Of a DNA stretch of 64,000 bases, positions 13,135 through 28,395 are shown piece after piece (position 1 is the first letter of the stretch; every line of letters starts with the position of its first letter). The DNA comes from Actinotalea subterranea (lineage in GTDB: Bacteria > Actinomycetota > Actinomycetes > Actinomycetales > Cellulomonadaceae), in contig NZ_VTTP01000012.1 in NCBI RefSeq assembly GCF_008364845.1, forward strand, positions 62,001 through 126,000, read 5' to 3'. The position numbers were made by a program, and so were the translations under genes. The notes beneath the pieces were generated by a model. It did not search any database. It had not been told where the DNA came from and saw nothing but the letters and a program-made list of their open reading frames with translations.

Positions 13135-13445
13135 CTCTCACCCTCCGCCCGACGACGCCGGCCCAGCAGGTGCCACAGCGCCGGCAGCAGCAGCACGCCC
13201 GCGAGGGGGTAGCTGAGGTCCTCGACCGGCGCGACGCCGAGGTCGATGCCGACGAGGTGGGCCTGGCCGTAGGTGAACAGGCCCGCCCGGATCATGAGGT
13301 TGTCGAAGACGACGGTCATGACCGCGAGCGCGACGAACGCGAGGGCCACCGGGCGCGCCCGGGGCAGCCCGGTCCGGCGTCGGACGACGACCGCCACCAC
13401 GGCGGCGACGGCCACGAACGCGAGGGCGAGCCACAGGTACGTCAC
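13131..13445 (-). CDS. crtYf: Lycopene cyclase subunit (CrtYf/CrtYd type)
   Basis: 104 residues with three predicted membrane helices. It shows the small-cyclase motif FDNLMIRAGLFTYG and the PVEDLSYPL region. In C50 producers two such small proteins form a heterodimeric cyclase. The GTG start at 13445 overlaps the crtYe stop by 4 bp, and its own stop overlaps the crtEb start, so translation is coupled. Which of the two subunits is e or f is assigned by operon order. Confidence 0.85.
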   Translation of the reverse strand: MTYLWLALAFVAVAAVVAVVVRRRTGLPRARPVALAFVALAVMTVVFDNLMIRAGLFTYGQAHLVGIDLGVAPVEDLSYPLAGVLLLPALWHLLGRRRRAEGER

Positions 13446-13819
13446 CGCGCACCTCCCGGGCGGCCCTCGCCGGAGACCGCCGCCGGTGCCCCGGTCGTCG
13501 ACCGCCGACCGCGCGGGGACCAGCGCGCGAACGCCGCGTACAGGTTCATCGTGAGGTAGCTCAGCAGCACCAGGAACCCGATCTCTTCGATCGGGAGGTG
13601 CGGCGCGAGCAGGATGCCCGTCATGTACGGCGTCTGCCCGCGCGCGAAGATGCCGAGGCCGACGCCCGCGAGGTCCCACGCCACGAAGAACGCGACGCCC
13701 GCGAGCAGGACGACCGCCGCGCGTCGGGCATCGGCGAAGAAGAACAGCCGGTGGCGGTGGTCGAGGATCACCATGCCGAGGATCGAGAGGGCGAGCGCAC
13801 CGGCGTACGCCAGGCTCAT
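13442..13819 (-). CDS. crtYe: Lycopene cyclase subunit (CrtYe/CrtYc type)
   Basis: 125 residues, three membrane helices. The motifs DHRHRLFFF, FVAWDLAGVGLGIFARGQ and LPIEEIGFLVLLSYLTMN are typical of the heterodimeric lycopene cyclases; PxEE is the conserved acidic pair. The ATG at 13819 overlaps the crtI stop by 4 bp. It works with the downstream subunit to form epsilon, beta or gamma end groups; which one cannot be told from the sequence. Confidence 0.88.
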   Translation of the reverse strand: MSLAYAGALALSILGMVILDHRHRLFFFADARRAAVVLLAGVAFFVAWDLAGVGLGIFARGQTPYMTGILLAPHLPIEEIGFLVLLSYLTMNLYAAFARWSPRGRRSTTGAPAAVSGEGRPGGAR

Positions 13820-15576
13820 GCGCGCGCCTCGCCGCCGGCGTGCGTCCGCAGGTCCGCGACCGCCGGGAGGTCGGGCATGCGCGACCCGAGCGGCTCGGCC
13901 AGCGGCCCGGAGGACACGTCGCCCCGCAGGCGCTTGACCACGAGCTCCGCGGAGATCAGGCACATCGGCAGCCCGATGCCGGGGATCACCGACCCGCCCG
14001 CGTACAGCAGGCCCGCGACGCGGCGCGAGACGTTGCCCGCACGGAACATCGCGCTCTGGCCGAGCGTGTGCGCGGGGCCGAGCGCGGTCCCGCGCCAGGC
14101 GCGCAGGTCCTCCGCCCAGTCCGCGGGCCCCACGGTGCGCCGCAGCACGACGCGCTCGGCGAGGTCGTCGACACCGGTCCACGAGGCGATCTGACCGATG
14201 ACCGCGTCGGCGAGCTCCTCGACCCACGGGTCACCCGTGCCGTCGAGGCCACCGCGGCCGAGGCGCACGTCGGGCGGCACCGGCACCAGGACGACGATGT
14301 TCTCCATGCCCTCGGGCGCGGCCGTCGGGTCGGTCGCGGTCACGCGGCTCACGTACACGGACGTCGGGTCCGGCATACGGGCGGGCGGCGCGTCGGTCAG
14401 CGGCGCGAAGATCCGGTCGAACGTCCGGTCCCAGCTGTCCGCGAAGAAGAGGCTGTGGTGCTCGATCTGCGGCAGGGGCCCGCGCACGCCGAGGTAGAGC
14501 ATCACGGCGCTCGGTCCCGGCACCTGCTTGCGCCACCAGCCCGGCGAGTAGGAGCGCAGCTCGGCGGGCAGCAGCTGCTGCTCGGTGTGGTGCAGGTCCG
14601 CGGTCGAGACGACGACGTCGGCCGCAAGCTCGTGCGTGCGGCCGTCGGCGTCGCGGTACCGGACGCCTGTCGCGCGGGCACGGTGCCCGGAGCCGTCGAA
14701 CCCGCCGAGCCACGCCGGTGCCTTCGCGAGGGCCGCGCGAACGCCCGCGGCGGGGCCGCTCAGCGGCGCGACGGGCAGGGGCGTCGTCGTCAGGGCCGTG
14801 ACGTCGGCGCCCGTGCGGATCCGCACGCCCTCCTTCTCGGCGACGCGACGCATCGCGTCGACCAGCTCGCCGAAGCCGCCGCGGGGGTAGAGCACGCCGT
14901 CGGTCAGGTCGAGGTAGCTCATGAGGTGGTACATGCTCGGCGTGAGGCGCGGCGCGGAGCCGAGGAACACGGCGGGGTACCCGAGGACCTGCTGGAGCCG
15001 GGTGTCGTCGACGGTGCCCCGGATGCGCGACTCGAGGGACTGGGTGAGCAGGCGCACGAGCTCGGGCAGGTGACGGAGCACGTCCGGGTGCGCGCTGCGG
15101 ACCAGGGACGCGAACGTCGTGTACAGGAAGTGGCGGGTCGCGATCGTGTACGCCTGCGACGCCGACGCGAGGTAGGCGCGCAGGCGCTCGCCGGCGCCGG
15201 GCTCGATCTCCTCGAACAGCCGGACGCTGTCCTCGAGGTCCGAGCGGATGTCGAGGGGCTCGTGCTCCTCGTAGTACACGCGGTAGGCCGGGTCGAGGCG
15301 CACGAGGTCGAGCTGCTCGTCCGCGGACGTCCCCAGGAGCCGGAACCAGTGGTCGAAGACCTCGGGCATGAGGTACCACGACGGGCCGATGTCGAAGCGG
15401 AAGCCGTCGCTGCGCCACGGTGCGGCGCGCCCGCCGACGTCGTCGCGCGCCTCGAGCACGGTGACGTCCCAGCCGTCGCGCGCGAGCAGCGCGGACGTGG
15501 CGAGGCCCGCGACACCGCCCCCGATGACGACGGCCGGACGCCGACGGATGCCCGCCGCGGTCCCGTCGGCGGTCAT
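13816..15576 (-). CDS. crtI: Phytoene desaturase
   Basis: 586 residues. The N-terminal FAD dinucleotide-binding motif is VVIGGGVAGLATSALLARDG, followed by VLEARDDVGGRA, and the C-terminal carotenoid-oxidase signature is LYAGGSVIPGIGLPMCLISA. It converts phytoene to lycopene at the membrane. It is somewhat longer than the usual 500-550 residues owing to an Ala/Pro/Gly insertion near residue 280 and a C-terminal tail. It overlaps crtB upstream and crtYe downstream by 4 bp each. Confidence 0.95.
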   Translation of the reverse strand: MTADGTAAGIRRRPAVVIGGGVAGLATSALLARDGWDVTVLEARDDVGGRAAPWRSDGFRFDIGPSWYLMPEVFDHWFRLLGTSADEQLDLVRLDPAYRVYYEEHEPLDIRSDLEDSVRLFEEIEPGAGERLRAYLASASQAYTIATRHFLYTTFASLVRSAHPDVLRHLPELVRLLTQSLESRIRGTVDDTRLQQVLGYPAVFLGSAPRLTPSMYHLMSYLDLTDGVLYPRGGFGELVDAMRRVAEKEGVRIRTGADVTALTTTPLPVAPLSGPAAGVRAALAKAPAWLGGFDGSGHRARATGVRYRDADGRTHELAADVVVSTADLHHTEQQLLPAELRSYSPGWWRKQVPGPSAVMLYLGVRGPLPQIEHHSLFFADSWDRTFDRIFAPLTDAPPARMPDPTSVYVSRVTATDPTAAPEGMENIVVLVPVPPDVRLGRGGLDGTGDPWVEELADAVIGQIASWTGVDDLAERVVLRRTVGPADWAEDLRAWRGTALGPAHTLGQSAMFRAGNVSRRVAGLLYAGGSVIPGIGLPMCLISAELVVKRLRGDVSSGPLAEPLGSRMPDLPAVADLRTHAGGEARA

Positions 15577-16481
15577 CGGGCACCCGCCGGTGCGAGCCGG
15601 CCGGGCGTGGGCCGGGACCCGCCGCCGCGCAGGGCGCGCGCGGCGACACGGACCTTGACGGGCCCAGGGACGCGGACGCGGGTTCGCGCGATCTCCGCCG
15701 CCGGGGTCACCGACAGCCGGCGCGTGAGCTCCGCGAAGAGCCCGTACGCGACGGCCACCGCACGGCGGGCCGCACCGGGCAGCCCGGCCATGGCGGTCGC
15801 CGCGAGCCGCAGGTCGTTCTCGATGTCGGCCAGGATCACGCGCTTCTGCTCCTCGGTGAGGTTCTGCGGGTCCACGTCCACGAAGTAGCTGCGGCCGAGC
15901 CGGTCGCTGTCGTCGGCGAGGTCCCGCAAGAAGTTGATCTTCTGGAAGGCGGCGCCGAGAGCCCGTGCCCCGGGGGTCAGGCGCTCGTACCGGGCCTCGC
16001 GCTCCGCGGGCGGCACGTCGAGGAGGAAGACCCGCAGGCACATGAGCCCGACGACCTCGGCCGAGCCGTACACGTAGGTCGCGAGGCTCTCGGCGTCGTG
16101 CACCGTCCGCTCGAGGTCCATGCGCATCGACGCGAAGAAGGGGCGCGTGAGGTCCTCGCGGATCCCCGCGCGGCGGGCCGTGCGCGCGAAGGCGTGGACG
16201 AGGAGGTTCGTCGAGTAGCCGCGCTCCAGGGCGCGCTCCGTCTCGGCCTCGAGCGCGTCGAGGAGCCGCCCCGCCTCCACCGCGTCGCCGCCCGCCTCGG
16301 CTGCGGCACCGTCGACGACCTCGTCCGCGAGCCTGACCAGGGCGTACACGTTGCGGATGTCCGTGCGGCAGTGCGCCGCGAGGATCCTGGTGGCGAGCCC
16401 GAAGCTCGTCGAGTACTCCCGGACCACGAGGTCCGCGGCGCGCTGAGCGACCGTGTCGTAGAGCGTCAGGCGGGCGGGCAC
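15573..16481 (-). CDS. crtB: Phytoene synthase
   Basis: 302 residues. It condenses two geranylgeranyl diphosphates to phytoene. The first Asp-rich motif is seen in VRLADEVVDG, and the second is KINFLRDLADDSDRLGRSYF (FLRDxxDD type). The N-terminal YSTSFGLATRIL is family-typical. The start lies within the end of crtE (16-bp overlap), and the stop overlaps crtI by 4 bp. Confidence 0.95.
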   Translation of the reverse strand: MPARLTLYDTVAQRAADLVVREYSTSFGLATRILAAHCRTDIRNVYALVRLADEVVDGAAAEAGGDAVEAGRLLDALEAETERALERGYSTNLLVHAFARTARRAGIREDLTRPFFASMRMDLERTVHDAESLATYVYGSAEVVGLMCLRVFLLDVPPAEREARYERLTPGARALGAAFQKINFLRDLADDSDRLGRSYFVDVDPQNLTEEQKRVILADIENDLRLAATAMAGLPGAARRAVAVAYGLFAELTRRLSVTPAAEIARTRVRVPGPVKVRVAARALRGGGSRPTPGRLAPAGAR

Positions 16482-17572
16482 CGGGCCTCCTCGATGTGTC
16501 GCGCGACGTCGTCGAGGGCCGCACCGATCTGGGCGGCGACCGACGAGACCACCGCTGCCGCGCCGGGCGGGAGCGCGCCGTCGGCCAGCCGTGCGGAGAT
16601 CTGGCCGAGGTCGGCCCCCACGGCATCCTGCACCATCGCGGGGGCGACCGACCGGGCCAGGGCCCTGCGCAGGTGCGCGGCCGTCGCCTGGTCGAGGTCG
16701 GGCCGGCCCAGGTGGTCGGCGAGCTCCGCCCAGACGGGCATGGTGCGCGCGTGCAGGATGAGCGGGGTGCGCTTGCCCTCGCGCAGGTCGGACAGGTTGC
16801 TCTTGCCGGTCTCCGCCTCGGGTGCGAACACCCCGAGCAGGTCGTCGACGAGCTGGAACGCGCGGCCGAGGAGGCGGCCGAGGCCGTCGAGCTCCTCGAG
16901 CACGGCACGGGGTGCGCGCGCGAGCACGGCGCCCGCGCGCAGCGGCGCCCGGAACGAGTACATCGCGGTCTTGGACTCCGCGACGAGCAGCGACTCCTCG
17001 AGCGTCGGCGCCTCGAGGCCGAGGCCGAAGGCCGTGTCCGCGAGCTCGCCACCGGCGGACACGAGCAGGGTCTCGTCGAGCAGGTCACGTAGGGCGTCCC
17101 GCAGCTCCGCGGGCACGGGCGCCCCGCCGATGAGCCGGTGGGCCTGGCTCAGCGCGAGGTCGCCGGCGAGGACGGCCGCGGCCTCGGACCAGCGCAGGGC
17201 CTGCTCGGAGCCGTGCCCGGCGCCCAGCACCTCGGCCCGCATCGTGGCCGCGAGGTTCGGCTGACCGCGGCGTACCGTGTCGTGGTCGATGAGGTCGTCG
17301 TGCACGAGGAAGGACGTGTGCAGCATCTCGAACCCGCACGCCACGGCCACGGCCGCCTCGCGGAGGTCGCCGCCGAGGCCGGCGTGGGTGCGCAGCACCA
17401 TCGCCGACCGGAACCGCTTGCCGCCGCGCACGCTCCGCTCGATCTCGCGCCACAGGAGCACGTACCGGGGCCCGAACTGCCTGGCCCGCTGCGACGCGTC
17501 GTCGAGCACGTGCGTGAGCAGGCGCTCGACCTGCTCGTCGAGGTCGGTCTCGGTGAGCGTCGTCGTGCTCAC
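16466..17572 (-). CDS. crtE: Geranylgeranyl diphosphate synthase (polyprenyl synthetase)
   Basis: 368 residues. First Asp-rich motif: HDDLIDHD; second: LVDDLLGVF; the GGKRFRSAMV region binds IPP. It builds the C20 precursor from IPP and allylic diphosphates. The GTG at 17572 is preferred because it overlaps the idi stop by 4 bp; an upstream in-frame extension would overlap idi much more. Context makes the carotenoid role likely over a menaquinone or general GGPP role. Confidence 0.92.
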   Translation of the reverse strand: MSTTTLTETDLDEQVERLLTHVLDDASQRARQFGPRYVLLWREIERSVRGGKRFRSAMVLRTHAGLGGDLREAAVAVACGFEMLHTSFLVHDDLIDHDTVRRGQPNLAATMRAEVLGAGHGSEQALRWSEAAAVLAGDLALSQAHRLIGGAPVPAELRDALRDLLDETLLVSAGGELADTAFGLGLEAPTLEESLLVAESKTAMYSFRAPLRAGAVLARAPRAVLEELDGLGRLLGRAFQLVDDLLGVFAPEAETGKSNLSDLREGKRTPLILHARTMPVWAELADHLGRPDLDQATAAHLRRALARSVAPAMVQDAVGADLGQISARLADGALPPGAAAVVSSVAAQIGAALDDVARHIEEARCPPA

Positions 17573-18105
17573 GGAACGCCGCCCTGGAGGTGCGGGAGGT
17601 CCACCGCGGAGCTGACGAGCCAGGGGCTGAACGCCCAGGGGGCCGCGTCGATCGCCCGGCGCAGGGCGTCGGGCTCGACCCACGCGTGGTCCATGACCTC
17701 GTCGGGGTTCGGCCGGGGCAGGCCCACGGCCCGCGCCGTGTGGACGGGGCAGATCTCGTTCTCGACGATGCCCGACGCGTCGGTCGCGCGGTACCGGAAG
17801 TCGGGGGCGACGAGGCGCACGTCGGCGAGCTCGAGGCCGAGCTCGTCACGCGCGCGCCGCCGCACGGCGTCCTCCATGGACTCGCCGGGGCCGGGGTGGC
17901 CGCACACGCTGTTGGTCCACACGCCGGGCCACGTCTTCTTGGCGAGGGCACGCCGCGTCACGAGGACCATGCCGTCGGCGTCGAGCACGTGGCAGGAGAA
18001 CGCGAGGTGCAGCGGGGTGTCGTGGGTGTGCACGGTGGCCTTGTCGGCGGTGCCCACGGGCTCGCCGTCCTCGGTGAGGAGGACGACCGTCTCGGCTGTC
18101 GTCAT
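17569..18105 (-). CDS. idi: Isopentenyl-diphosphate delta-isomerase, type 1
   Basis: 178 residues, Nudix-fold. Catalytic Cys lies in NSVCGHP and catalytic Glu in VENEICPV; the Nudix-like helix GESMEDAVRRRARDELG follows. It interconverts IPP and DMAPP and supplies the allylic starter for CrtE. First gene of the carotenoid operon; ATG is preceded by GGGGAAGGGG. A palindromic operator lies 39 bp upstream. Confidence 0.95.
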   Translation of the reverse strand: MTTAETVVLLTEDGEPVGTADKATVHTHDTPLHLAFSCHVLDADGMVLVTRRALAKKTWPGVWTNSVCGHPGPGESMEDAVRRRARDELGLELADVRLVAPDFRYRATDASGIVENEICPVHTARAVGLPRPNPDEVMDHAWVEPDALRRAIDAAPWAFSPWLVSSAVDLPHLQGGVP

Positions 18106-18141
18106 GGTGGGCCCCTTCCCCGCGCCGGGTCCGCCGCGGAA

Positions 18142-18161
18142 ATACTCAGTATGCTGAGCAT
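18142..18161 (-). promoter_or_regulatory. Palindromic operator of the carotenoid operon
   Basis: On the plus strand ATACTCAGTAT (18142-18152) and ATGCTGAGCAT (18151-18161) are overlapping palindromes; the core is CTCAG-TATG-CTGAG (18145-18158). Read toward idi, the site is ATG-CTCAG-N4-CTGAG-TATT, nearly the same as the site before the TspO-like gene at 32758-32771. It lies between the divergent idi and glycosyltransferase genes and could control both. The binding protein is unknown. Confidence 0.65.
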
Positions 18162-19978: not shown

Positions 19979-22900
19979 TCAGGCCGCGCACGCTCCGAGC
20001 GGCTTCCACAGGTCGGGGATCTGCGGCGGGATGTAGTACGCGGTCTCGCTCCGGAGGCGCTCGTAGTTGATGAAGTCGTACGAGACGACGGCGCCCTTGG
20101 CGTAGAAGGCCCCCTGGACCCACACGGGCTCGCACTCAGGCAGCAGGCGCGTGGTCTCGGAGATGGCGTCCACGCCCTCGGCGCTCGCCGTAACCGTCAC
20201 CGCGCGGTCGGGCGCCTGCCCACGGACCAGGAACGACATCGAGAGCGTCGCATCGGCGCCGACCTCGAGCGGGGCGGTCCGCGTGCACGTCGCGGGGGCG
20301 TTGCTGCCGTGCACGGCGAGACACTCCCAACCCGTTCCTGACGGTACGGACTCCCACAGCACCGCCGGAGGCAGGGTCACCGTGACGGCAACCCCCGTGA
20401 GCGGCGCCTCGCCGTCGTTCCCGACGGACGCGCTGAACTCCTCGACGCGGCCGCTGATGTAGCCGTGGTCGGCCGGGACGGTCAGTGCGAGACGACCGGG
20501 CTCGAGGACGGTCACGGACAGCTCGTCGCGGAGCACGGCAGCGCCGGGCGCCGTCGCGTCCAGGGTCACGCGGTGGGCTCCGTTGCTCGCGGACCCGGGC
20601 ACCACGACGTCCAGGGGGACAGTGGTCGCGCGTGCGCCGACGCCAGGTGCGACGGGGACGTCGGTGCACACCTGGGAGGGCGCGCCGCACGAGCGCCAGG
20701 CACCGCCCGCCGCGTTCCACCCGTTCGGGAACGTGACGGTCGCGCTCGCGTTCGCCGTCGTCCCGCCGTGGTTCTCGAGCACCACGCTCGTCGTGTGGAC
20801 CGCGCCGCGGCCGACGCGGGCGTCGCCGCCGATCGAGGCCACGAGCTGCGCAGGAGCAGAGGTGATCGTCACCGGGGCGACGGCCACGGCCGGGCCCGCC
20901 GCCGGGACGTGCACCTGGACCTCGGCCGCACGGGCGACGTCCAGCAGGCCCGTGCCCGCGGTCAGGTCGGGGACTGCGGCACGCAGGGTCAGCGACAGCG
21001 GCTGGGCGCTCTTGGGCGCGAGCGCCGGGAGCGTGCAGGCCAGGGCACCCGAGCTGGGGGCGCCGCAGGACCACGGCGCCACGCCTTCGATCGTCACGCC
21101 GGCCGGGAGGCCACCGGGCACGGCGACGGTCGCCGCGACATCGCGCGCCGTCGTCCGGCCCTCGTTGCTCACGGGGACGGTGACGGTCGCCGCCTGGACC
21201 GCGCTCGTGCTTCCGGTCAGGGTCGTGGCACCCGAGGCTGCGCCGATCACGACGTCCGCCGGGGCGGAGGCGACGCGCGCGGGCTTGAACGTCGGCGTGG
21301 GGCGCTGCGAGGCGCCGGGGGCCCAGGTGGCCATGCCGATGGAGAGGTCGCGGCTCGCGTCGAGGGTGCCGTCGTCCGCGATCAGCACGGCTGCGCGCAG
21401 CGTCGCCGAGTCGCCAGGTGCGAGGTCACGCGTCGTGCACGTCGCGGTCGTCGCGGTCGACCGGACGCACGCCCAGCCGCCCGTCGACACGGCCGCGCGG
21501 GACGCCCCTGCGCCGCCCGTGACCGGGGCCAGGGCCCGCACGTCCCACCCGACGCCGTCGGCGAAGACGAACTCGGTGCGCACCTCGTCCGCGCTGCCCG
21601 TGCCCCTGTTCTCGACGGTCACGCTGACGACCTCGGCGACCCCCGCCGTCAGGGCCAGCTCACCCGGCTCCTGCACGACGAGGTCGGGCGTCGGCGTCGG
21701 GTCGTCGGCCGGGTCGTCGGCTGCCGGGCCCGGCACGACGGCGGGCGGCCTCGTCGAGCCGCTCGTCTGCACGGCGGAGTCGTCGTCGGGGATGTTCGTG
21801 GGGTCGGTCAGGTCCGCCGGGGGCTCGACCACGGGCTGCGTCGGCTGCGTCGACGGCTCCGCGGTGGGCTGCGTGCGAAGGTCGGCGTCGTCGTCGGCCG
21901 TGCCCGTCGTGTCATCGGCGTCAGGGCTCGGGGTCGCGTCGGCGACGGCCGGCGGGTCCTGCGAGAACGCGCCGAGGCTGCCCGCGACGCCCACGGCCCC
22001 GCCGACGACGACGACGCCCGCCACCGCCAGGCCCAGCGCCCCGGCGGGCACGGCCGCGAGGAGACCCGCGAGGCCGCTCGCGGCACCCACGGCAGTGGCA
22101 GTGGTGGCCGCTGCTCCCGCGCCCACACCCGCGCTGACCGCTGTCGCTCCCGCTCCTACGCCGGCACCCGCAGTCCCGGCACCCGCACCGACGCCCGCAG
22201 TCCCGGCGCCCGCACCGGCACCGGCACCTGCCGAGCCGGCACCCGCACCCGCACCGCCCGCGCCTCCGGCACCACCCGCACCACCGGAGCCAGCACCCAC
22301 GCCCGCACCCGAGCCGGCCGTCGACGAACCCGCCGTCGCGCCCGTGCCGCCACCCATCGCCGCACCGACACCGCTGCTCGCGGCGATGCCGCCCGTCGCA
22401 GCGGCCGCACCGGCAGCGCCACCGAACCCGAGTCCCTGCAGGACCGCGACCGCCACGGCGCCGAGCACCAGCGGACCGATCACGGCGCGCATGCCGTGGT
22501 TGACGTCACCGAGCTCCAGGACGAGCGCACGGCACGCGCCGCACTCCTCGAGGTGGCTCTCGACGAGCGCCGTCTCGCGCTTCGCGAGGCCACCACGCAC
22601 GTAGGCGCCGAGCTTCGCGTTGACGATCGTGCACGCCTCGCCCGCGGGGGCCGCGAGGTGCTGCTGGAGGTACGCCTGGCGCAGGCCCTCGCGGGCGCGG
22701 TACGCCAGGGCGGCGACGCCGTTGGCCGTGAGGCCGAGGACGGGCGCGATCTCGGCAGGGCTGAGCTCCTCGACCTCCGTGTACCAGAGGACCGCCTGCC
22801 ACCGCTCCGGCAGCGACTTGTAGGCCTGCGAGACGATGCCCCGCTCGAACCCCGCGAGCGCCGGCTCCTCGGTCGACGCGGCCGCGGGCACGGCAGCCTC

Positions 22901-23224
22901 GAACAGCTCGAGGTCGTCGCTGGGCCGCGCACGTCGGACGGCCTCGACCCGGTCGAGCGCGACACGGCGCAGGACCGTGAAGAGGTAGGCACGGAAGGCG
23001 ACATCGGGACCGCCGCCGCCCTGGATCGCGGAGAACACACGCGAGAAGGCGTCCGAGACGGCGTCCTCGGCGTCGGCGGAGGAGTTCGAGTACTGGCGGG
23101 CGACCGCGCGCGCGGCACCGGCGTGACGCTCGTAGAGCGTGCCGAACGCAGCCGACTCGCCGCTGCGGACAGCGGTGATCAGCTCGGCGTCGCTCGAGAG
23201 GTCCCACGCGCTGCCGACACTCAC
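19979..23224 (-). CDS. Membrane-anchored ECF sigma factor fused to anti-sigma zinc finger, repeat ectodomain and CBM-like module
   Basis: 1081 residues. Domains in order: sigma region 2 (about 14-95, AELITAVRSGESAAFGTLYE), region 4 (about 135-190, LSPAEIAPVLGLTANGVAAL), a zinc-finger anti-sigma-like motif H224-x3-C228-x2-C231, a hydrophobic helix (about 247-265), a Gly/Ala-rich spacer (about 266-385), a second hydrophobic segment (about 385-415), a Pro/Thr/Asp-rich linker, several CARDB/DUF11-like beta repeats (about 515-1020), and a 50-residue C-terminal module with the WVQGAFYAKGAVVSY ... LWKPLGAC pattern of CBM5/12 chitin- or cellulose-binding domains. GTG at 23224 is chosen because AAAGGGG lies 6 nt upstream. 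The likely job is to sense an external polymer and release or activate the sigma domain. Two hydrophobic segments leave the topology open. Confidence 0.88.
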   Translation of the reverse strand: MSVGSAWDLSSDAELITAVRSGESAAFGTLYERHAGAARAVARQYSNSSADAEDAVSDAFSRVFSAIQGGGGPDVAFRAYLFTVLRRVALDRVEAVRRARPSDDLELFEAAVPAAASTEEPALAGFERGIVSQAYKSLPERWQAVLWYTEVEELSPAEIAPVLGLTANGVAALAYRAREGLRQAYLQQHLAAPAGEACTIVNAKLGAYVRGGLAKRETALVESHLEECGACRALVLELGDVNHGMRAVIGPLVLGAVAVAVLQGLGFGGAAGAAAATGGIAASSGVGAAMGGGTGATAGSSTAGSGAGVGAGSGGAGGAGGAGGAGAGAGSAGAGAGAGAGTAGVGAGAGTAGAGVGAGATAVSAGVGAGAAATTATAVGAASGLAGLLAAVPAGALGLAVAGVVVVGGAVGVAGSLGAFSQDPPAVADATPSPDADDTTGTADDDADLRTQPTAEPSTQPTQPVVEPPADLTDPTNIPDDDSAVQTSGSTRPPAVVPGPAADDPADDPTPTPDLVVQEPGELALTAGVAEVVSVTVENRGTGSADEVRTEFVFADGVGWDVRALAPVTGGAGASRAAVSTGGWACVRSTATTATCTTRDLAPGDSATLRAAVLIADDGTLDASRDLSIGMATWAPGASQRPTPTFKPARVASAPADVVIGAASGATTLTGSTSAVQAATVTVPVSNEGRTTARDVAATVAVPGGLPAGVTIEGVAPWSCGAPSSGALACTLPALAPKSAQPLSLTLRAAVPDLTAGTGLLDVARAAEVQVHVPAAGPAVAVAPVTITSAPAQLVASIGGDARVGRGAVHTTSVVLENHGGTTANASATVTFPNGWNAAGGAWRSCGAPSQVCTDVPVAPGVGARATTVPLDVVVPGSASNGAHRVTLDATAPGAAVLRDELSVTVLEPGRLALTVPADHGYISGRVEEFSASVGNDGEAPLTGVAVTVTLPPAVLWESVPSGTGWECLAVHGSNAPATCTRTAPLEVGADATLSMSFLVRGQAPDRAVTVTASAEGVDAISETTRLLPECEPVWVQGAFYAKGAVVSYDFINYERLRSETAYYIPPQIPDLWKPLGACAA

Positions 23225-23488
23225 GCGGACCCCTTTCTGCTCGGTCCGGGTCAGATGCGTCCTGCTCTGCACGGCGCCGTCGCTGCACCACTGGTGACCG
23301 TCGACGACGCCGACCTGCTTGTCACGGTCTGCCGCCCGCCACCCAGGGTCTCATGACACGCGCGCGCAGGCGCTAGTGCCCAAGGGTGACATCGGCAGCA
23401 GCCGTCTGGCACTCATCGGCAGCCCGCCCGAGGAAATGAGGTGTCCGAACCGGCGTCATAGGCACGGACCTGACCGCTCTCATCCCCC

Positions 23489-24256
23489 GTGACGGAGACC
23501 GAGCAGCTCCACGACGCGGGCGCAGTGGCCTTGCGTGAGCAGTGGCGTGCCGTGACGGTCGACGCCGTCTGGCTGCGGCCCGGCGACTGGTACCACCCGG
23601 CCGTCGACGCGCTCGTCGAGGCCATCGTGAGCGGCGGGTCACCCCTTGCCGCAGCCGCGCGGCTCGGCGAGTCCCGAGGGGCCGCGGGCGTCGGCATCGC
23701 GGAGACCCTGGACGACGTCGCTGCGCTCTACGGGCTCATCGGCCTCGAGCCGGGCCTCGACGTCGTGCGCGCGCTGTGCGAGGGCTGGGCCGTGGCGGTC
23801 GAGGGGATCCCCGTCCAGGCCGCGTGCATCGAGCCCGAGTCCGGCCTGCCGACCCTCGAGTACCTCGCGGTGCGGCTCGGCGAGACCTACGGGGCCGCCC
23901 GCAAGCACGCGCACCACGCCTTCCTCACGCACTGCCTCGTGCTCGTCGACGTGGCCACCGAGGAGCTGCCCGCCTGGCGTCGCATGGCACGGTCCGCCGC
24001 GATGGGTCGGGCCCTGAGCAGCGCACTGGTCCCGGGCCACCCCATGGCGGCCCTCGGCGGCGGCGCCTTCGCCGTCCTCGTCGCCCGCGACTTCGACCTC
24101 GGCGAGACCGTGCGCCTCATGCGCGACCAGGTGAACGAGCAGGCCGCGCAGCTGCAGATCAGCGACCTGCTGCGCCAGCCGCCGCGCATCTGGATCGAGC
24201 CGCTCCCCGAGACCCACGAGCGTGCCGTCGACCTCCTCAACCACCTGCGTCGGTGA
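23489..24256 (+). CDS. Degenerate GGDEF-domain protein
   Basis: 255 residues, GTG start, no clear ribosome site. The C-terminal half resembles a GGDEF domain: EPESGLPTLEYLAVRLGE matches the DxLTGLxNRRYL entry motif, and LGGGAFAVLVAR sits where GGDEF should be. With GGGAF the diguanylate-cyclase active site is lost, so a nucleotide-sensing or purely structural role is more likely. The N-terminal 100 residues are unrecognised. It is divergent from the giant sigma factor across 264 bp with no other gene, so the two may be co-regulated or act together. Confidence 0.6.
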   Translation: MTETEQLHDAGAVALREQWRAVTVDAVWLRPGDWYHPAVDALVEAIVSGGSPLAAAARLGESRGAAGVGIAETLDDVAALYGLIGLEPGLDVVRALCEGWAVAVEGIPVQAACIEPESGLPTLEYLAVRLGETYGAARKHAHHAFLTHCLVLVDVATEELPAWRRMARSAAMGRALSSALVPGHPMAALGGGAFAVLVARDFDLGETVRLMRDQVNEQAAQLQISDLLRQPPRIWIEPLPETHERAVDLLNHLRR

Positions 24257-24342: not shown

Positions 24343-24759
24343 TCAGTCGCGGTGCGCGGGGCGCCACACGACGAGCGCACCGGTCGACGTGACGCGCGCG
24401 GGCCGGTGGCCACGGGGCACGGCGACGACCTCGCCCTGGGGCCCCGCGGTGAAGACCCGACGGCCGGGGTCTGCGAGGGTTCGCAGGAGCTCGACCTGCT
24501 GCTCGAGGCGCTCGACCTCGCTCTCGAGCGCGAGGATGCGCTTGATGCCGGCGAGGTTGATGCCCTCGTCCTGGGAGAGGCGTTGCACCTCGCGCAGCGT
24601 CGCGATGTCCCGCAGCGAGTAGCGGCGGCCCCGGCCGCGCGTCCGACCGGGCGAGACGAGCCCGAGCCGGTCGTACTGGCGGAGCGTCTGCGGGTGCATG
24701 CCTGCGAGCTCCGCGGCGACGGAGATCACGAAGGCCGGGGCGTCGTACGCCATCGACAT
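24343..24759 (-). CDS. hspR: Heat-shock repressor HspR (MerR family)
   Basis: 138 residues. N-terminal MerR winged helix (FVISVAAELAGMHPQTLRQYDRLG, here split by residues 8-31; wing GRGRRYSLRDI), then EINLAGIKRI-like DEGINLAGIKRILALE and a coiled coil (about 80-105). HspR represses the dnaK operon by binding HAIR elements, two of which lie upstream of dnaK here. ATG at 24759 is preceded by GAGGAGG. Last gene of dnaK-grpE-dnaJ-hspR, which gives autoregulation. Confidence 0.95.
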   Translation of the reverse strand: MSMAYDAPAFVISVAAELAGMHPQTLRQYDRLGLVSPGRTRGRGRRYSLRDIATLREVQRLSQDEGINLAGIKRILALESEVERLEQQVELLRTLADPGRRVFTAGPQGEVVAVPRGHRPARVTSTGALVVWRPAHRD

Positions 24760-24822
24760 CGCGTCCTCCTCACTCCTCGTCGGGTGCCGCCGCACGCCTC
24801 ACGCGCACGGCGGCACGTCCAC

Positions 24823-25854
24823 CTACTGCGTCGCGCGGGCGCGGAGCTCGGCGCGCACGTCGGCGTCCGCGGTCGCCTTCGCGAAGGTCTCGACGGCCTC
24901 CCGCGCCTCGGCGGACAGCCGTTGCGGGACGGCGACCTGCACGCTGACGAGCAGGTCGCCCGACGTCGTGCCCTGCTTCACGCCCCGGCCCCGCACGCGC
25001 AGGGTCCGGCCCGACGGCGTCCCCTCGGGGATCTTGACGCGCACCGTCCCGCCGTCGAGGGTCGGGACCTCGACCTGCGCACCGAGCGCCGCCTCCGCGA
25101 ACGTCACGGGCACGGTCACACGCAGGTCGCGCCCGTCGAGGGAGAACACCGGGTGCGGCTCGACCTTCACGGCGATGACCAGGTCACCGGCCGCCGCGCC
25201 ACCCTCGCCCGGCCGACCCTTGCCACGCAGCCGGATCTTCTGACCGTCGCGCACACCCGCGGGGATGCGCGCGGTCACGCGTCGGCCCTCGACGCCGATC
25301 GTCACGGTCGAGCCCTCGACGGCCTGCCGGAAGGGCAGTGTCGTGCTCGCCTCGATGTCGACGCCGCGCTGGGCGCCCCGGTTGGGCCGGAAGCCGGCGG
25401 GCGCTCCCCCGCCGCCACCACCCCCGAAAAGGCCACCGAGGATGTCCTCGAAGCCGGGCGGGACCTGGCCGCCCTGCCCGCCCGTCGAGTACCTGACGCG
25501 CGAGCCGGCGCCACCGGCACCACCGCCGCCACCGAACAGCCCGCCGAAGAGGTCCTCGAACCCGGCCGCACCCGAGCCGCCGCCGGGGCCACCCGGTGCG
25601 GAGAAGCGTGCGCCGCCGCCGGCCATCGCGCGGATCGCGTCGTACTGCTGCCGCTGCTCGGGGTCGGAGAGCACGGCGTAGGCCTCGCCGACCTCCTTGA
25701 AGCGCGACTCCGCGGCGGCGTCGTCGGGGTTGTGGTCGGGGTGCAGCGTGCGGGCGAGCTTGCGGTAGGCCTTCTTGATCGCCGCGGCGTCCGCGTTCTT
25801 GGGCACGCCGAGGGTCGCGTAGAAGTCCTTCTCGAACCAGTCCTGCCCGGCCAT
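24823..25854 (-). CDS. dnaJ: DnaJ-family co-chaperone lacking the zinc finger
   Basis: 343 residues. J domain at 1-75 with the HPD tripeptide ([10 protein letters not shown]), a Gly/Phe-rich region (about 85-150, [13 protein letters not shown]), then two beta-rich substrate-binding domains. The CxxCxGxG zinc repeats of type I DnaJ are absent, so this is a type II (CbpA-like) protein in the position where actinobacteria often carry DnaJ1. AGGAGG lies 6 nt before the ATG. It stimulates DnaK ATPase and delivers unfolded clients. Confidence 0.93.
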
Positions 25855-25936
25855 CACCTACCTCCTTCCGCTGCTCGTGCGGTCCGGGCCCGCGCATCGG
25901 CTGCGCGGGCCCGTCCCGGACCTGACCCCATGGCGC

Positions 25937-26542
25937 TCAGGCGCCCGGCTCCGCGACCGCCACGCGCGCGGCGCGCACGATGCGCTCGCCCACGCGGTGA
26001 CCCGGCTGGAGCACACGCACCACCGTCGCCTCGGTCACGTCGTCGGAGTGCTCGTGCATGAGCGCCTCGTGCACGTTCGGGTCGAAGGCCTCGCCCTCGA
26101 CGCCGTACCGCTCCCAGCCGAAGCGTCCCAGGCTCGTCTCGAGCTTCTCCGCGATCGACGCGAACGGACCCTCACCGAGCTCGCCGTGCTGGCGTGCGAG
26201 CTCGACCTCGTCGAGCACGCCGATGAGCGCCTCGACCATGGCGACGACCGTCTGGTCGCGTGCGACGAGCCGGTCACGGTCCACGCGCTTGCGGTAGTTG
26301 ACGTACTCGGCCTGGAGCCGCTGCAGGTCGTCGAGCCGCTCCGCCGCGAGGGCCTGCGCGGTCTCGAGGTCCCCGCCCGGTGCGGCCGCCGCGTCGTCGG
26401 GCCGGGAGCCCGGCGTCGTGCCCGCGTCGGTGTGCGCCGGCTCGCGCACGGCGCCCGTCTCCGGGTCGATGCGTCGCTTGTCGGTGAACCGCGGGCGGGT
26501 CGGGTCCTCCGACCCGCCCGCGGTGGTGGTCTCGTCCGTCAC
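25937..26542 (-). CDS. grpE: Nucleotide exchange factor GrpE
   Basis: 201 residues. A disordered acidic N-terminus (about 1-60) precedes the long coiled coil ([22 protein letters not shown] is its core, at about 70-90) and the beta domain with the motif [13 protein letters not shown] and the terminal [21 protein letters not shown]. GrpE releases ADP from DnaK. The start overlaps the dnaK stop by 4 bp. Confidence 0.97.
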
Positions 26543-28395
26543 TTCTTCTCGTCCTCGTCCACGATCTCGGCGTCGACGACGTCCTCGTCCGAGGCGGACG
26601 ACGACGGCTGCTCGGTCTCGGGCGCGGCCTCGGGGGTCTCGCTCTCGGCCTTGTAGATGGCCTCGCCGATCTTCTGGCTCACCGCGGCGAGCGCGGCGTG
26701 CTTGGACTTCACGGCCTCGACGTCCGTGCCCTCGAGCGCGGTGCGGACCTCGGCGATCGCGGCGGTGACCTCGGTCTTGACGTCCTCGGGCACCTTGTCG
26801 CCGTTGTCCGCGAGCACCTTCTCCGTGGAGTAGGCGAGCGACTCGGCCTGGTTGCGGACCTCGGCCTCCTCGCGACGCTGCTTGTCCTCGGCGGCGTGCG
26901 CCTCGGCCTCCTTGATCATCCGGTCGATCTCGTCCTTCGCGAGGGCCGAGCCGCCGGTGATCGTCATCGACTGCTCCTTGTTGGTGCCGCGGTCCTTGGC
27001 GGACACGTGCACGATGCCGTTCGCGTCGATGTCGAACGTGACCTCGATCTGCGGGACGCCGCGGGGCGCGGGCGCGATGCCCGTGAGCTCGAACGTGCCG
27101 AGCGGCTTGTTGTCCCGCGCGAACTCGCGCTCGCCCTGGAAGACCTGGATCAGCACCGACGGCTGGTTGTCGTCCGCCGTGGAGAAGATCTCGCTGCGCT
27201 TGGTCGGGATGGCCGTGTTGCGCTCGATGAGCTTGGTCATCACGCCGCCCTTGGTCTCGATGCCGAGGCTCAGGGGGGTCACGTCGATGAGCAGCACGTC
27301 CTTGCGCTCACCCTTGATGACACCGGCCTGGAGCGCGGCGCCGACGGCGACGACCTCGTCCGGGTTGACGCCCTTGTTGGGCTCCTTGCCGCCCGTGAGC
27401 TCCCGCACGACGTCGGCCACGGCCGGCATGCGCGTCGAGCCACCGACGAGGACCACGTGGTCGATGTCGGCCAGCGAGATGCCCGCGTCGCGGATGACCG
27501 CGTTGAAGGGCGCCTTGGTGCGCTCGATCAGGTCGGCCGTCATCTGCTGGAACTGCGCCCGCGTGAGCTTGGAGTCCAGGTGGATGGGGCCGTTCTCGCT
27601 CATCGAGAGGTACTGCATCGAGATGTTGGTGCTCGTCGCGGACGAGAGCTCCTTCTTGGCCTGCTCGGCCGCCTCGCGCAGACGCTGGAGCGCGATCTTG
27701 TCCTTGGACAGGTCGACACCCGCGGTGTTCTTGACCTCCTTGATGAGGTGCTCGACGATCCGGTTGTCCCAGTCGTCGCCGCCGAGCCGGTTGTCGCCCG
27801 ACGTCGCACGGACCTGGATGGTCGAGAACTGGTCCTCGTCCTTGCCCACCTCGAGCAGGGACACGTCGAACGTGCCGCCGCCGAGGTCGAAGACGAGGAT
27901 GAGCTCGTCCTCCTTGCCCTTCTCGAGGCCGTAGGCGAGCGCGGCCGCGGTCGGCTCGTTGACGATCCGCAGGACGTTCAGGCCGGCGATCTGGCCGGCG
28001 TCCTTCGTGGCCTGACGCTCGGCGTCGTTGAAGTACGCGGGGACCGTGATGACCGCGTCGGTGACGGGCTCGCCCAGGTACTCCTCGGCGTCGCGCTTGA
28101 GCTTGCCGAGCACGCGCGCCGAGATCTCCTGCGCGTTGTACTTCTTGTCGTCGACCGCGACGCTCCAGTCCGTGCCCATGTGGCGCTTGACCGAGCTGAT
28201 GGTGCGGTCGACGTTGGTGACGGCCTGTCGCTTGGCGACCTCGCCGACCAGCACCTCGCCGGTCTTGGAGAACGCGACGACGGACGGCGTCGTGCGCGCA
28301 CCCTCGGCGTTCGCGATGACGGTGGGCTCGCCGCCCTCCAGGACGGCGACCACGGAGTTGGTGGTGCCGAGGTCGATTCCGACCGCTCGTGCCAT
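26539..28395 (-). CDS. dnaK: Hsp70 chaperone DnaK
   Basis: 618 residues, full length. The ATPase domain opens with [18 protein letters not shown] and contains [17 protein letters not shown] and [12 protein letters not shown]; the substrate domain and a helical lid follow, ending in the acidic [11 protein letters not shown] tail typical of DnaK. It heads the heat-shock operon dnaK-grpE-dnaJ-hspR. Two HAIR operators lie 74-157 bp upstream. The ATG has GGAGG nearby. Confidence 0.99.

What the first reader, a model, noticed from the sequence alone, without database searches (positions are those of the whole stretch)
19979..23224. Single-polypeptide transmembrane sigma factor with polysaccharide-binding-like ectodomain
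Sigma regions 2 and 4, a ZAS-type HxxxCxxC motif, hydrophobic segments, Ig-like repeats and a C-terminal CBM5/12-like module are in one 1081-residue frame. In Clostridium thermocellum the anti-sigma RsgI carries the CBM and SigI is separate; here sensor, inhibitor and sigma factor are fused. Release would need proteolysis or a membrane-tethered active sigma. In a presumed cellulolytic actinobacterium this could be a one-component sensor of cellulose or chitin. The Gly/Ala spacer between two hydrophobic segments leaves topology unresolved.
Basis: partly seen in the sequence, partly recalled or inferred. Interest (0 to 1): 0.88.

Follow-up and report, generated by a model that had tools for sequence, protein, structure and literature searches.

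The report
Membrane-anchored sigma factor with swappable sensor
One bacterial gene joins a transcription switch, its own inhibitor, a membrane anchor and a sugar-binding-like outer tip; this kind of fusion is already known, but a conserved partner gene and a shared promoter-like signal beside it suggest what it may control.

Summary
In detail: window 23224..19979 (minus strand) is one intact 1081-residue frame with sigma regions 2 and 4, a zinc anti-sigma domain, hydrophobic segments, Cys-paired Ig-like repeats and a CBM5/12-like tip. It is not a joining error: 61 of 64 relatives not cut by a contig end have a frame of 500 or more residues. The fusion is not new: it matches ECF52, exemplified by Streptomyces SCO4117, for which proteolytic release was already proposed. 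Found here: (1) the cytoplasmic half is conserved while the tip is exchanged (CBM5/12-, DUF3344-, NPCBM- or ricin-like); (2) topology is best read as one crossing at the second hydrophobic segment; (3) a degenerate GGDEF-fold protein is encoded next door in 70 of 78 loci, and 34 of 34 copies in 296 genomes adjoin a gene of this sigma family; (4) its promoter-like box GCGTCAT-N17-STCTCA recurs in the genus upstream of LuxR-type, RsbW-like ATPase and EAL genes (15 of 17 other sites); no cellulase or chitinase was recognised among them. That this sigma factor reads the box is plausible but unproven. The chitin-binding aromatic pair is not conserved, so 'cellulose or chitin sensor' stays open.

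The parts
19979..23224 (-). ECF52-like sigma factor fused to anti-sigma domain, membrane segment and ectodomain (P0001, 1081 aa, GTG start, stop included)
22934..23137 (-). sigma-70 region 2 (residues 30-97)
   Evidence: Pfam E 4.9e-13
22688..22828 (-). sigma-70 region 4 (residues 133-179); LPERWQAVLWYTE (138-150) invariant in 35 of 35 aligned sequences
22529..22633 (-). zf-HC2 anti-sigma (ZAS) domain, residues 198-232; C198, H224, C228, C231
22430..22486 (-). hydrophobic segment 1 (residues 247-265), directly after the ZAS helix; proposed not to cross the membrane
   Evidence: model confidence below 50 there
22061..22429 (-). Gly/Ala spacer (residues 266-388), no K, R, D or E
21971..22060 (-). 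hydrophobic segment 2 (about residues 389-418), proposed single membrane crossing
21692..21970 (-). acidic Pro/Thr-rich linker (about residues 419-511)
20165..21691 (-). Ig-like CARDB/DUF11-type repeats (about residues 512-1020) with Cys pairs 586/596, 720/730, 846/853, 968/980
19982..20149 (-). CBM5/12-like tip (residues 1026-1081), Cys1031 and Cys1079 near its ends
23453..23482 (+). promoter-like box GCGTCAT-N17-CTCTCA read toward the partner gene, six bases before its GTG
23489..24256 (+). divergent partner gene, degenerate GGDEF-fold protein (255 aa, GGDEF replaced by GGGAF), no Pfam match at E<=0.01 on its own

Best explanation
An ECF52-type membrane-anchored sigma factor. Shown by sequence: sigma regions 2 and 4, a zinc anti-sigma domain in the same chain, strongly hydrophobic segments and a Cys-paired ectodomain ending in a CBM5/12-like module. 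Inferred: the chain crosses the membrane once, at about residues 389-418; the zinc domain holds the sigma part inactive in the cytoplasm; an outer event at the exchangeable tip (binding of a wall, matrix or substrate glycan) triggers cleavage in or near the membrane; the freed sigma part then transcribes from promoters with GCGTCAT near -35 and STCTCA near -10. Its first target would be the divergent degenerate-GGDEF partner, and in this genus probably also EAL, LuxR-type and RsbW-like genes, so it would switch a set of signalling proteins rather than hydrolases directly.
For: Domains; invariant zinc ligands and region-4 stretch in 35 of 35; frame of 500 or more residues in 61 of 64 loci not cut by a contig end; family match at E<=1e-20 in 104 of 296 class genomes; seven fetched homologues from g31 (taken to be Streptomyces) are 41-44% identical over about 250 residues, and the one scanned has NPCBM like SCO4117. 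Topology: 81 of 89 relatives are net acidic in the 60 residues after segment 2; in the 25 before it 23 are net basic, 1 acidic, 65 neutral; Cys counts beyond residue 300 are even in 55 of 59 relatives that have any. Partner: divergent neighbour in 70 of 78 loci; 34 of 34 partner hits in 296 genomes adjoin the sigma gene. Box: 33 exact sites in 19 genus genomes, none for the reversed pattern; 16 at the partner, 15 of the other 17 before LuxR, ATPase or EAL genes; a genus matrix scores at 68 of 84 partner loci outside the training loci, at least two of which repeat others. In the class sample the refined box is in 11 of 34 partner genomes and 15 of 262 others (Fisher p 2e-5; the refined form was defined after the sites were seen).
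Against: No direct evidence that this sigma reads the box. The plain exact pattern is only weakly tied to the partner in the class sample (14 of 34 against 69 of 262, p 0.10) and occurs in 83 of 296 genomes, 43 of them without a sigma-family match; many of those sites look like chance or conserved coding sequence. G013 (550 contigs, 95% complete) has a box but no detected sigma gene; in G003 only the ectodomain half was found and no box at a partner; G017 has the sigma gene but no exact box. The box in sense toward the sigma gene is rare (2 of 80 regions), so no autoregulation is seen. GCGTCAT was not seen in 391-450 bases before the match start of ten g31 and f26 homologues, though in the seven g31 loci that stretch is at least partly coding, so their promoters were not examined. 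The motif reported for SCO4117 (CSGY-N17-SRHA) differs. The window's spacer has no charges, so topology rests on relatives and Cys pairs. AlphaFold gives no reliable placement of residues 243-273. S2P proteases are in the genome but also in 14 of 14 control genomes, so this is no specific support. The SCO4117 passages seen propose cleavage but do not show it.
Confidence: 0.6

Rival explanations
1. The architecture and membrane release are as above, but the GCGTCAT box belongs to another sigma factor or a regulator, and the neighbouring gene is only a syntenic passenger.
For: G013 has a box without a detected sigma gene; no box drives the sigma gene itself; hspR-, dnaJ- and dnaK-like genes are also found in 52, 51 and 49 of 79 loci, so the whole region is syntenic; boxes occur in genomes without the sigma family.
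Against: 34 of 34 partner hits in 296 genomes adjoin the sigma gene, 7 of them (weak hits, E 1e-12 to 1e-17, all in family f26) in a same-strand arrangement; no partner hit occurs in a genome without the sigma family in that sample.
Confidence: 0.3
2. One reading: a one-component sensor of cellulose or chitin that switches on polysaccharide degradation.
For: CBM5/12-like tip with chitinase-type relatives; Cellulomonas-type neighbours in the family of relatives.
Against: The consecutive Y-W or W-W pair reported as important in CBM5 (PMC8449059, passages) is not conserved; at the position aligned with ChiA1 Trp687 4 of 8 tips are aromatic (Tyr in the window). Among the genes found after the 17 non-partner sites none was recognised as a cellulase or chitinase; one is a GH77 4-alpha-glucanotransferase and one (L234) has no Pfam match; only the downstream gene was examined. 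Cellulase content of the genome was not tested.
Confidence: 0.15
3. A permanently membrane-tethered sigma factor or adhesin in which the sigma part is regulated without cleavage, for example by rearrangement of the zinc domain.
For: No cleavage site was identified or sought here; SCO4117 is phosphorylated (PMC5826349, passage).
Against: A tethered sigma would have to act at the membrane; IutY, a fused sigma/anti-sigma, is released by proteolysis (PMC8999054, passage).
Confidence: 0.15

Closest known systems
ECF52 sigma factors, SCO4117 of Streptomyces coelicolor
   Same: ECF sigma part, zf-HC2-type domain, membrane segment, Pro-rich stretch and C-terminal carbohydrate-binding module in one chain; seven g31 homologues 41-44% identical over about 250 residues, the one scanned with NPCBM. 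SCO4117 itself was not compared
   Different: CBM5/12-like instead of NPCBM tip, Ig-like stalk, longer Gly/Ala spacer, adjacent degenerate-GGDEF gene, different promoter-like motif
ECF48 and ECF53 sigma factors
   Same: Sigma fused to zinc finger and one or two membrane helices (PMC8999054, passage)
   Different: Group models were not available, so these groups are not excluded; the tip-bearing plan is closest to ECF52
IutY of Pseudomonas putida (ECF243)
   Same: Sigma and anti-sigma fused and released by regulated proteolysis (passage)
   Different: Iron-siderophore system in a Gram-negative; no glycan-binding tip (recalled)
SigI/RsgI of Clostridium thermocellum
   Different: Two proteins there; no RsgI-type domain among the Pfam matches of this protein at E<=10

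Membership tests
ECF52 sigma factors | ECF sigma regions 2 and 4 only | tested here: met
ECF52 sigma factors | fused zinc-finger anti-sigma domain | tested here: met
   zf-HC2 E 4.9e-9; ligands invariant in 35 of 35
ECF52 sigma factors | transmembrane helices, then Pro-rich extension | tested here: met
   by hydropathy only, no dedicated topology predictor
ECF52 sigma factors | carbohydrate-binding domain in the C-terminal extension | tested here: met
   CBM5/12-like by family profile; single-sequence Pfam score under cut-off
ECF52 sigma factors | membership by the published ECF group model | not testable with these tools
   one classification paper looked up and not held; no group models on hand
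CBM5/12 | Pfam gathering score | tested here: not met
   15.1 bits in the protein, 21.0 for the tip alone, cut-off 26.2
CBM5/12 | core aromatics and a disulfide joining the domain ends | tested here: met
   W1035, Y1041, W1073 invariant in 8 of 8; both Cys in 7 of 8; end-to-end disulfide in CBM5 per PMC8449059
CBM5/12 | exposed aromatic binding face | tested here: inconclusive
   Tyr1063-Tyr1064 in the window, not conserved among 8 tips
GGDEF domain (partner gene) | GGDEF fold | tested here: met
   profile to 7e6g 1.4e-6; model pLDDT 88.4; Foldseek 3ezu 7e-6; Pfam GGDEF or GGDEF_2 matched only 4 of 29 members, best 6e-4
Diguanylate cyclase (partner gene) | acidic residues of the GGDEF motif | tested here: not met
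   GGGAF in the window; positions 3 and 4 are never D or E in 29 of 29 rows
RsgI anti-sigma | RsgI N-terminal domain | tested here: not met
   not among Pfam matches at E<=10

The most novel reading that the evidence does not exclude
ECF52 sigma factors and a catalytically dead GGDEF-fold protein form a two-gene surface-sensing switch of Actinobacteria: an exchangeable glycan-binding tip outside, released sigma inside, and a nucleotide-sensor-like partner, together driving a leaderless regulon of c-di-GMP-type, LuxR-type and partner-switching regulators.
Probability: 0.35. Interest if true: 0.75.

Novelty: new variant of a known kind. Interest (0 to 1): 0.55.

Why it matters
The sigma family is widespread (104 of 296 sampled class genomes); the passages seen call SCO4117 the first ECF52 member characterised, with its promoter motif and release unsettled. 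A near-constant neighbour and a conserved promoter-like box in small genomes give direct, cheap tests of what such membrane-anchored sigma factors switch and whether they couple to c-di-GMP-type signalling. The tip exchange shows a modular sensor head on a fixed transcription unit.

Tried and rejected
Sequencing error or gene joining: rejected. Tip unique to the window: rejected; by the 8-tip profile 18 of 95 complete or ectodomain-bearing sequences have a CBM5/12-like end, 8 of the 18 being the profile's own rows; a 13-tip profile gives 17; 29 have a DUF3344-like end (L112 repeats L078; the DUF3344 name rests on one match under cut-off). Finding the window's tip in relatives by single-sequence phmmer found only itself; genus genomes solved this. 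The first upstream alignment left the window out through a file-reading slip; redone. The GTACCAGTC block near the box reads as coding sequence of the partner. The class-wide exact box search is mostly noise (association tests). AlphaFold of the cytoplasmic half did not settle segment 1. Not tested: cellulase or chitinase content of the genome, ECF-group models, dedicated topology prediction. The Trp687 paper search listed no paper with that residue (listing only); its role in ChiA1 is recalled.

In the 89 sequences some are not meaningful for segment 2: L011 is cut by a contig end; L028, L053 and L079 look frame-shifted at their ends. They were left in the counts. L058 was not in the 89.
Full report
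OBSERVATION. The frame at 19979-23224 is on the minus strand: GTG at 23224, 1081 residues, stop at 19979. Pfam finds sigma region 2, sigma region 4, zf-HC2, CARDB and DUF11 above cut-off and CBM_5_12 below it. AAAGGGG precedes the GTG, and 12 relatives of the genus start at the same place or two codons earlier, so the 1097-aa upstream start is less likely. The genome holds no second copy.

NOT A JOINING ERROR. The search for related loci kept 79 loci (119 stretches encoded a relative; the best 80 were kept). Fifteen are cut by the contig end; of the other 64, 61 have a frame of at least 500 residues from the match start (L028, L058 and L076 are shorter). Eleven of the 15 end at residues 274-341, in or near the Gly/Ala spacer. 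The first 273 residues of 35 chosen sequences align at 47-88% identity to the window, with C198, H224, C228, C231 and LPERWQAVLWYTE invariant.

KNOWN CLASS. ECF52 sigma factors are described as sigma domain, zinc finger, transmembrane region, Pro-rich C-terminal extension and carbohydrate-binding domain, only in Actinobacteria; SCO4117 is called the first member characterised, and proteolytic release has been proposed (PMC5826349, abstract and passages; PMC8999054, passages; PMC10766802, passages). Huang 2015 is not held; Pinto and Mascher 2016 was not looked up; both are known here through those passages. In a sample of 296 class genomes 104 have a match at E<=1e-20. Hence the fusion itself is a member of a known kind; SCO4117 was not compared directly.

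TIP. Eight chosen tips of the window's genus align with Trp1035, Tyr1041, Val1047, Arg1056 and Trp1073 invariant. Their profile finds CBM5/12 modules in the PDB, and 8 of 8 match PF02839 at E<=0.1. The Cys pair near the ends (7 of 8) fits the end-to-end disulfide described for CBM5 (PMC8449059, passages). But the consecutive Y-W or W-W pair described there as important is not conserved: the window has Tyr1063-Tyr1064, the second opposite ChiA1 Trp687 in the phmmer alignment (residue number recalled); the other seven tips have F, Y, T, L, L, F, T there. So the fold is supported and the ligand is not. Elsewhere the end differs: of 95 sequences 18 have a CBM5/12-like end, 29 a DUF3344-like end, none both. 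Within the genus itself some members have the CBM5/12-like end and others the DUF3344-like end or neither.

TOPOLOGY. The sigma part must be cytoplasmic. After the zinc domain the ten cysteines of the window fall in five pairs. Of 64 complete relatives, 55 have an even, non-zero number beyond residue 300, four an odd number (L017, L022, L053, L078) and five none. This points to an outside location, hence an odd number of crossings. Segment 2 is the more hydrophobic in 73 of 89. The 60 residues after it are net acidic in 81 of 89; the 25 before it are net basic in 23, acidic in 1 and neutral in 65, the window included. One crossing at segment 2, with segment 1 as a membrane-lying or sigma-packing helix next to the zinc domain, fits best. 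The AlphaFold model is uncertain there; Foldseek matches the sigma part with SigE-RseA, AlgU-MucA and SigW-RsiW entries.

PARTNER GENE. A 255-aa gene starts 264 bases away on the other strand (23489). It has no Pfam match at E<=0.01. Its homologue is divergent beside the sigma gene in 70 of 78 loci with enough upstream DNA (in L010 only residues 93-255 match). A profile of 29 homologues finds GGDEF structures (7e6g, 1.4e-6), while single members match Pfam GGDEF models weakly (GGDEF_2 in 3, GGDEF in 1 of 29). The model (pLDDT 88.4) matches GGDEF proteins (3ezu, 7e-6). The acidic residues of the motif are missing in 29 of 29 rows, so it is unlikely to be a cyclase. In the same 296 genomes 34 have the partner at E<=1e-10, all 34 among the 104 with the sigma family, and all 34 copies lie within 460 bases of the sigma match: 27 divergent, 7 on the same strand, the latter weak hits (E 1e-12 to 1e-17) in f26. 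No f25/g31 genome has it.

PROMOTER-LIKE BOX. In 80 upstream regions the most frequent spaced pair is TGAGA-N19-TGACG, in 49. Read toward the partner it is GCGTCAT-N17-STCTCA; in the window it ends six bases before the partner's GTG, and in most Micrococcales loci five or six bases before an in-frame start, as in leaderless transcripts. GCGTCAT in that orientation is in 67 of 80 regions, in the other in 10. In the own genome the looser form has 3 matches. In 19 genus genomes the exact form has 33 sites and the reversed control none: 16 at the partner gene and 17 elsewhere. Of the 17, five precede a small LuxR-type gene, five a short and two a long HATPase_c_2 (RsbW-like) gene, three an EAL gene, and two other genes (one GH77, one unknown); first start codons there lie 1-46 bases after the box or were not found, so leaderless spacing is clear for the partner and less so for the rest. 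The own genome has the box at the partner and an EAL gene, and with one mismatch at a LuxR gene; five other one-mismatch sites have no clear gene start in place. A matrix from 30 genus sites beats 20 shuffles by 3 bits at 79 of 96 partner loci, 68 of 84 outside the training loci (at least two repeat others); 67 of the 79 have an in-frame start 2-11 bases on; in many of L118-L146 only the first half is kept.

INTERPRETATION. Who reads the box is inferred. For: it stands beside the sigma gene, the partner was not found without the sigma family, region 4 hardly changes, and the refined box is in 11 of 34 partner genomes against 15 of 262 others (p 2e-5; refined after seeing the sites). Against: the plain pattern shows no clear association with the partner (14 of 34 against 69 of 262, p 0.10); G013 has a box but no detected sigma gene, G017 the reverse, G003 lacks both at this locus as assembled; ten g31 and f26 loci show no GCGTCAT in the stretch searched, though it is partly coding in g31; the SCO4117 motif differs. 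If right, the sigma factor controls signalling proteins, and hydrolases at most indirectly.

NOVELTY. No held paper contains both ECF52 and GGDEF, nor ECF sigma factor, leaderless and GGDEF together; a broader search listed five papers (listing only). Most subscription papers, including the classification papers, are outside the library, so prior notice of the neighbour cannot be excluded.

Noticed in passing
window 24343-28395: Genes that read as hspR, dnaJ, grpE and dnaK (named by eye) lie directly beyond the partner gene; hspR-, dnaJ- and dnaK-like stretches are also in 52, 51 and 49 of 79 fetched loci.
   Followed up: partly
L200, L201, L202 (genus g39): Two box-like sites about 3.4 kb apart lie on either side of a symporter-like gene and next to two other gene starts in three genomes, a possible different target set; the one gene scanned has no Pfam match.
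   Followed up: partly
L237 (G000:C21:314577-314606): An EAL-domain gene in the same genome with an exact copy of the box six bases before a GTG.
   Followed up: partly
L241 (G000:C22:243548-243577): A small LuxR-type gene in the same genome preceded by the box with one mismatch.
   Followed up: partly
L005, L011, L012, L014, L015 and others: Fifteen of 79 loci end inside the gene, 11 of them at residues 274-341; in several fragmented genus genomes ectodomain and sigma parts sit on different contigs, which would hide the fusion from annotation.
   Followed up: yes
L010 upstream of 8001: The partner homologue matches only from residue 93 and the box is missing; possibly a damaged or rearranged partner gene.
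   Followed up: no
window 13442-18157: Frames that read like phytoene desaturase, phytoene synthase, polyprenyl synthase and isopentenyl diphosphate isomerase (by eye); a likely carotenoid cluster, not searched.
   Followed up: no
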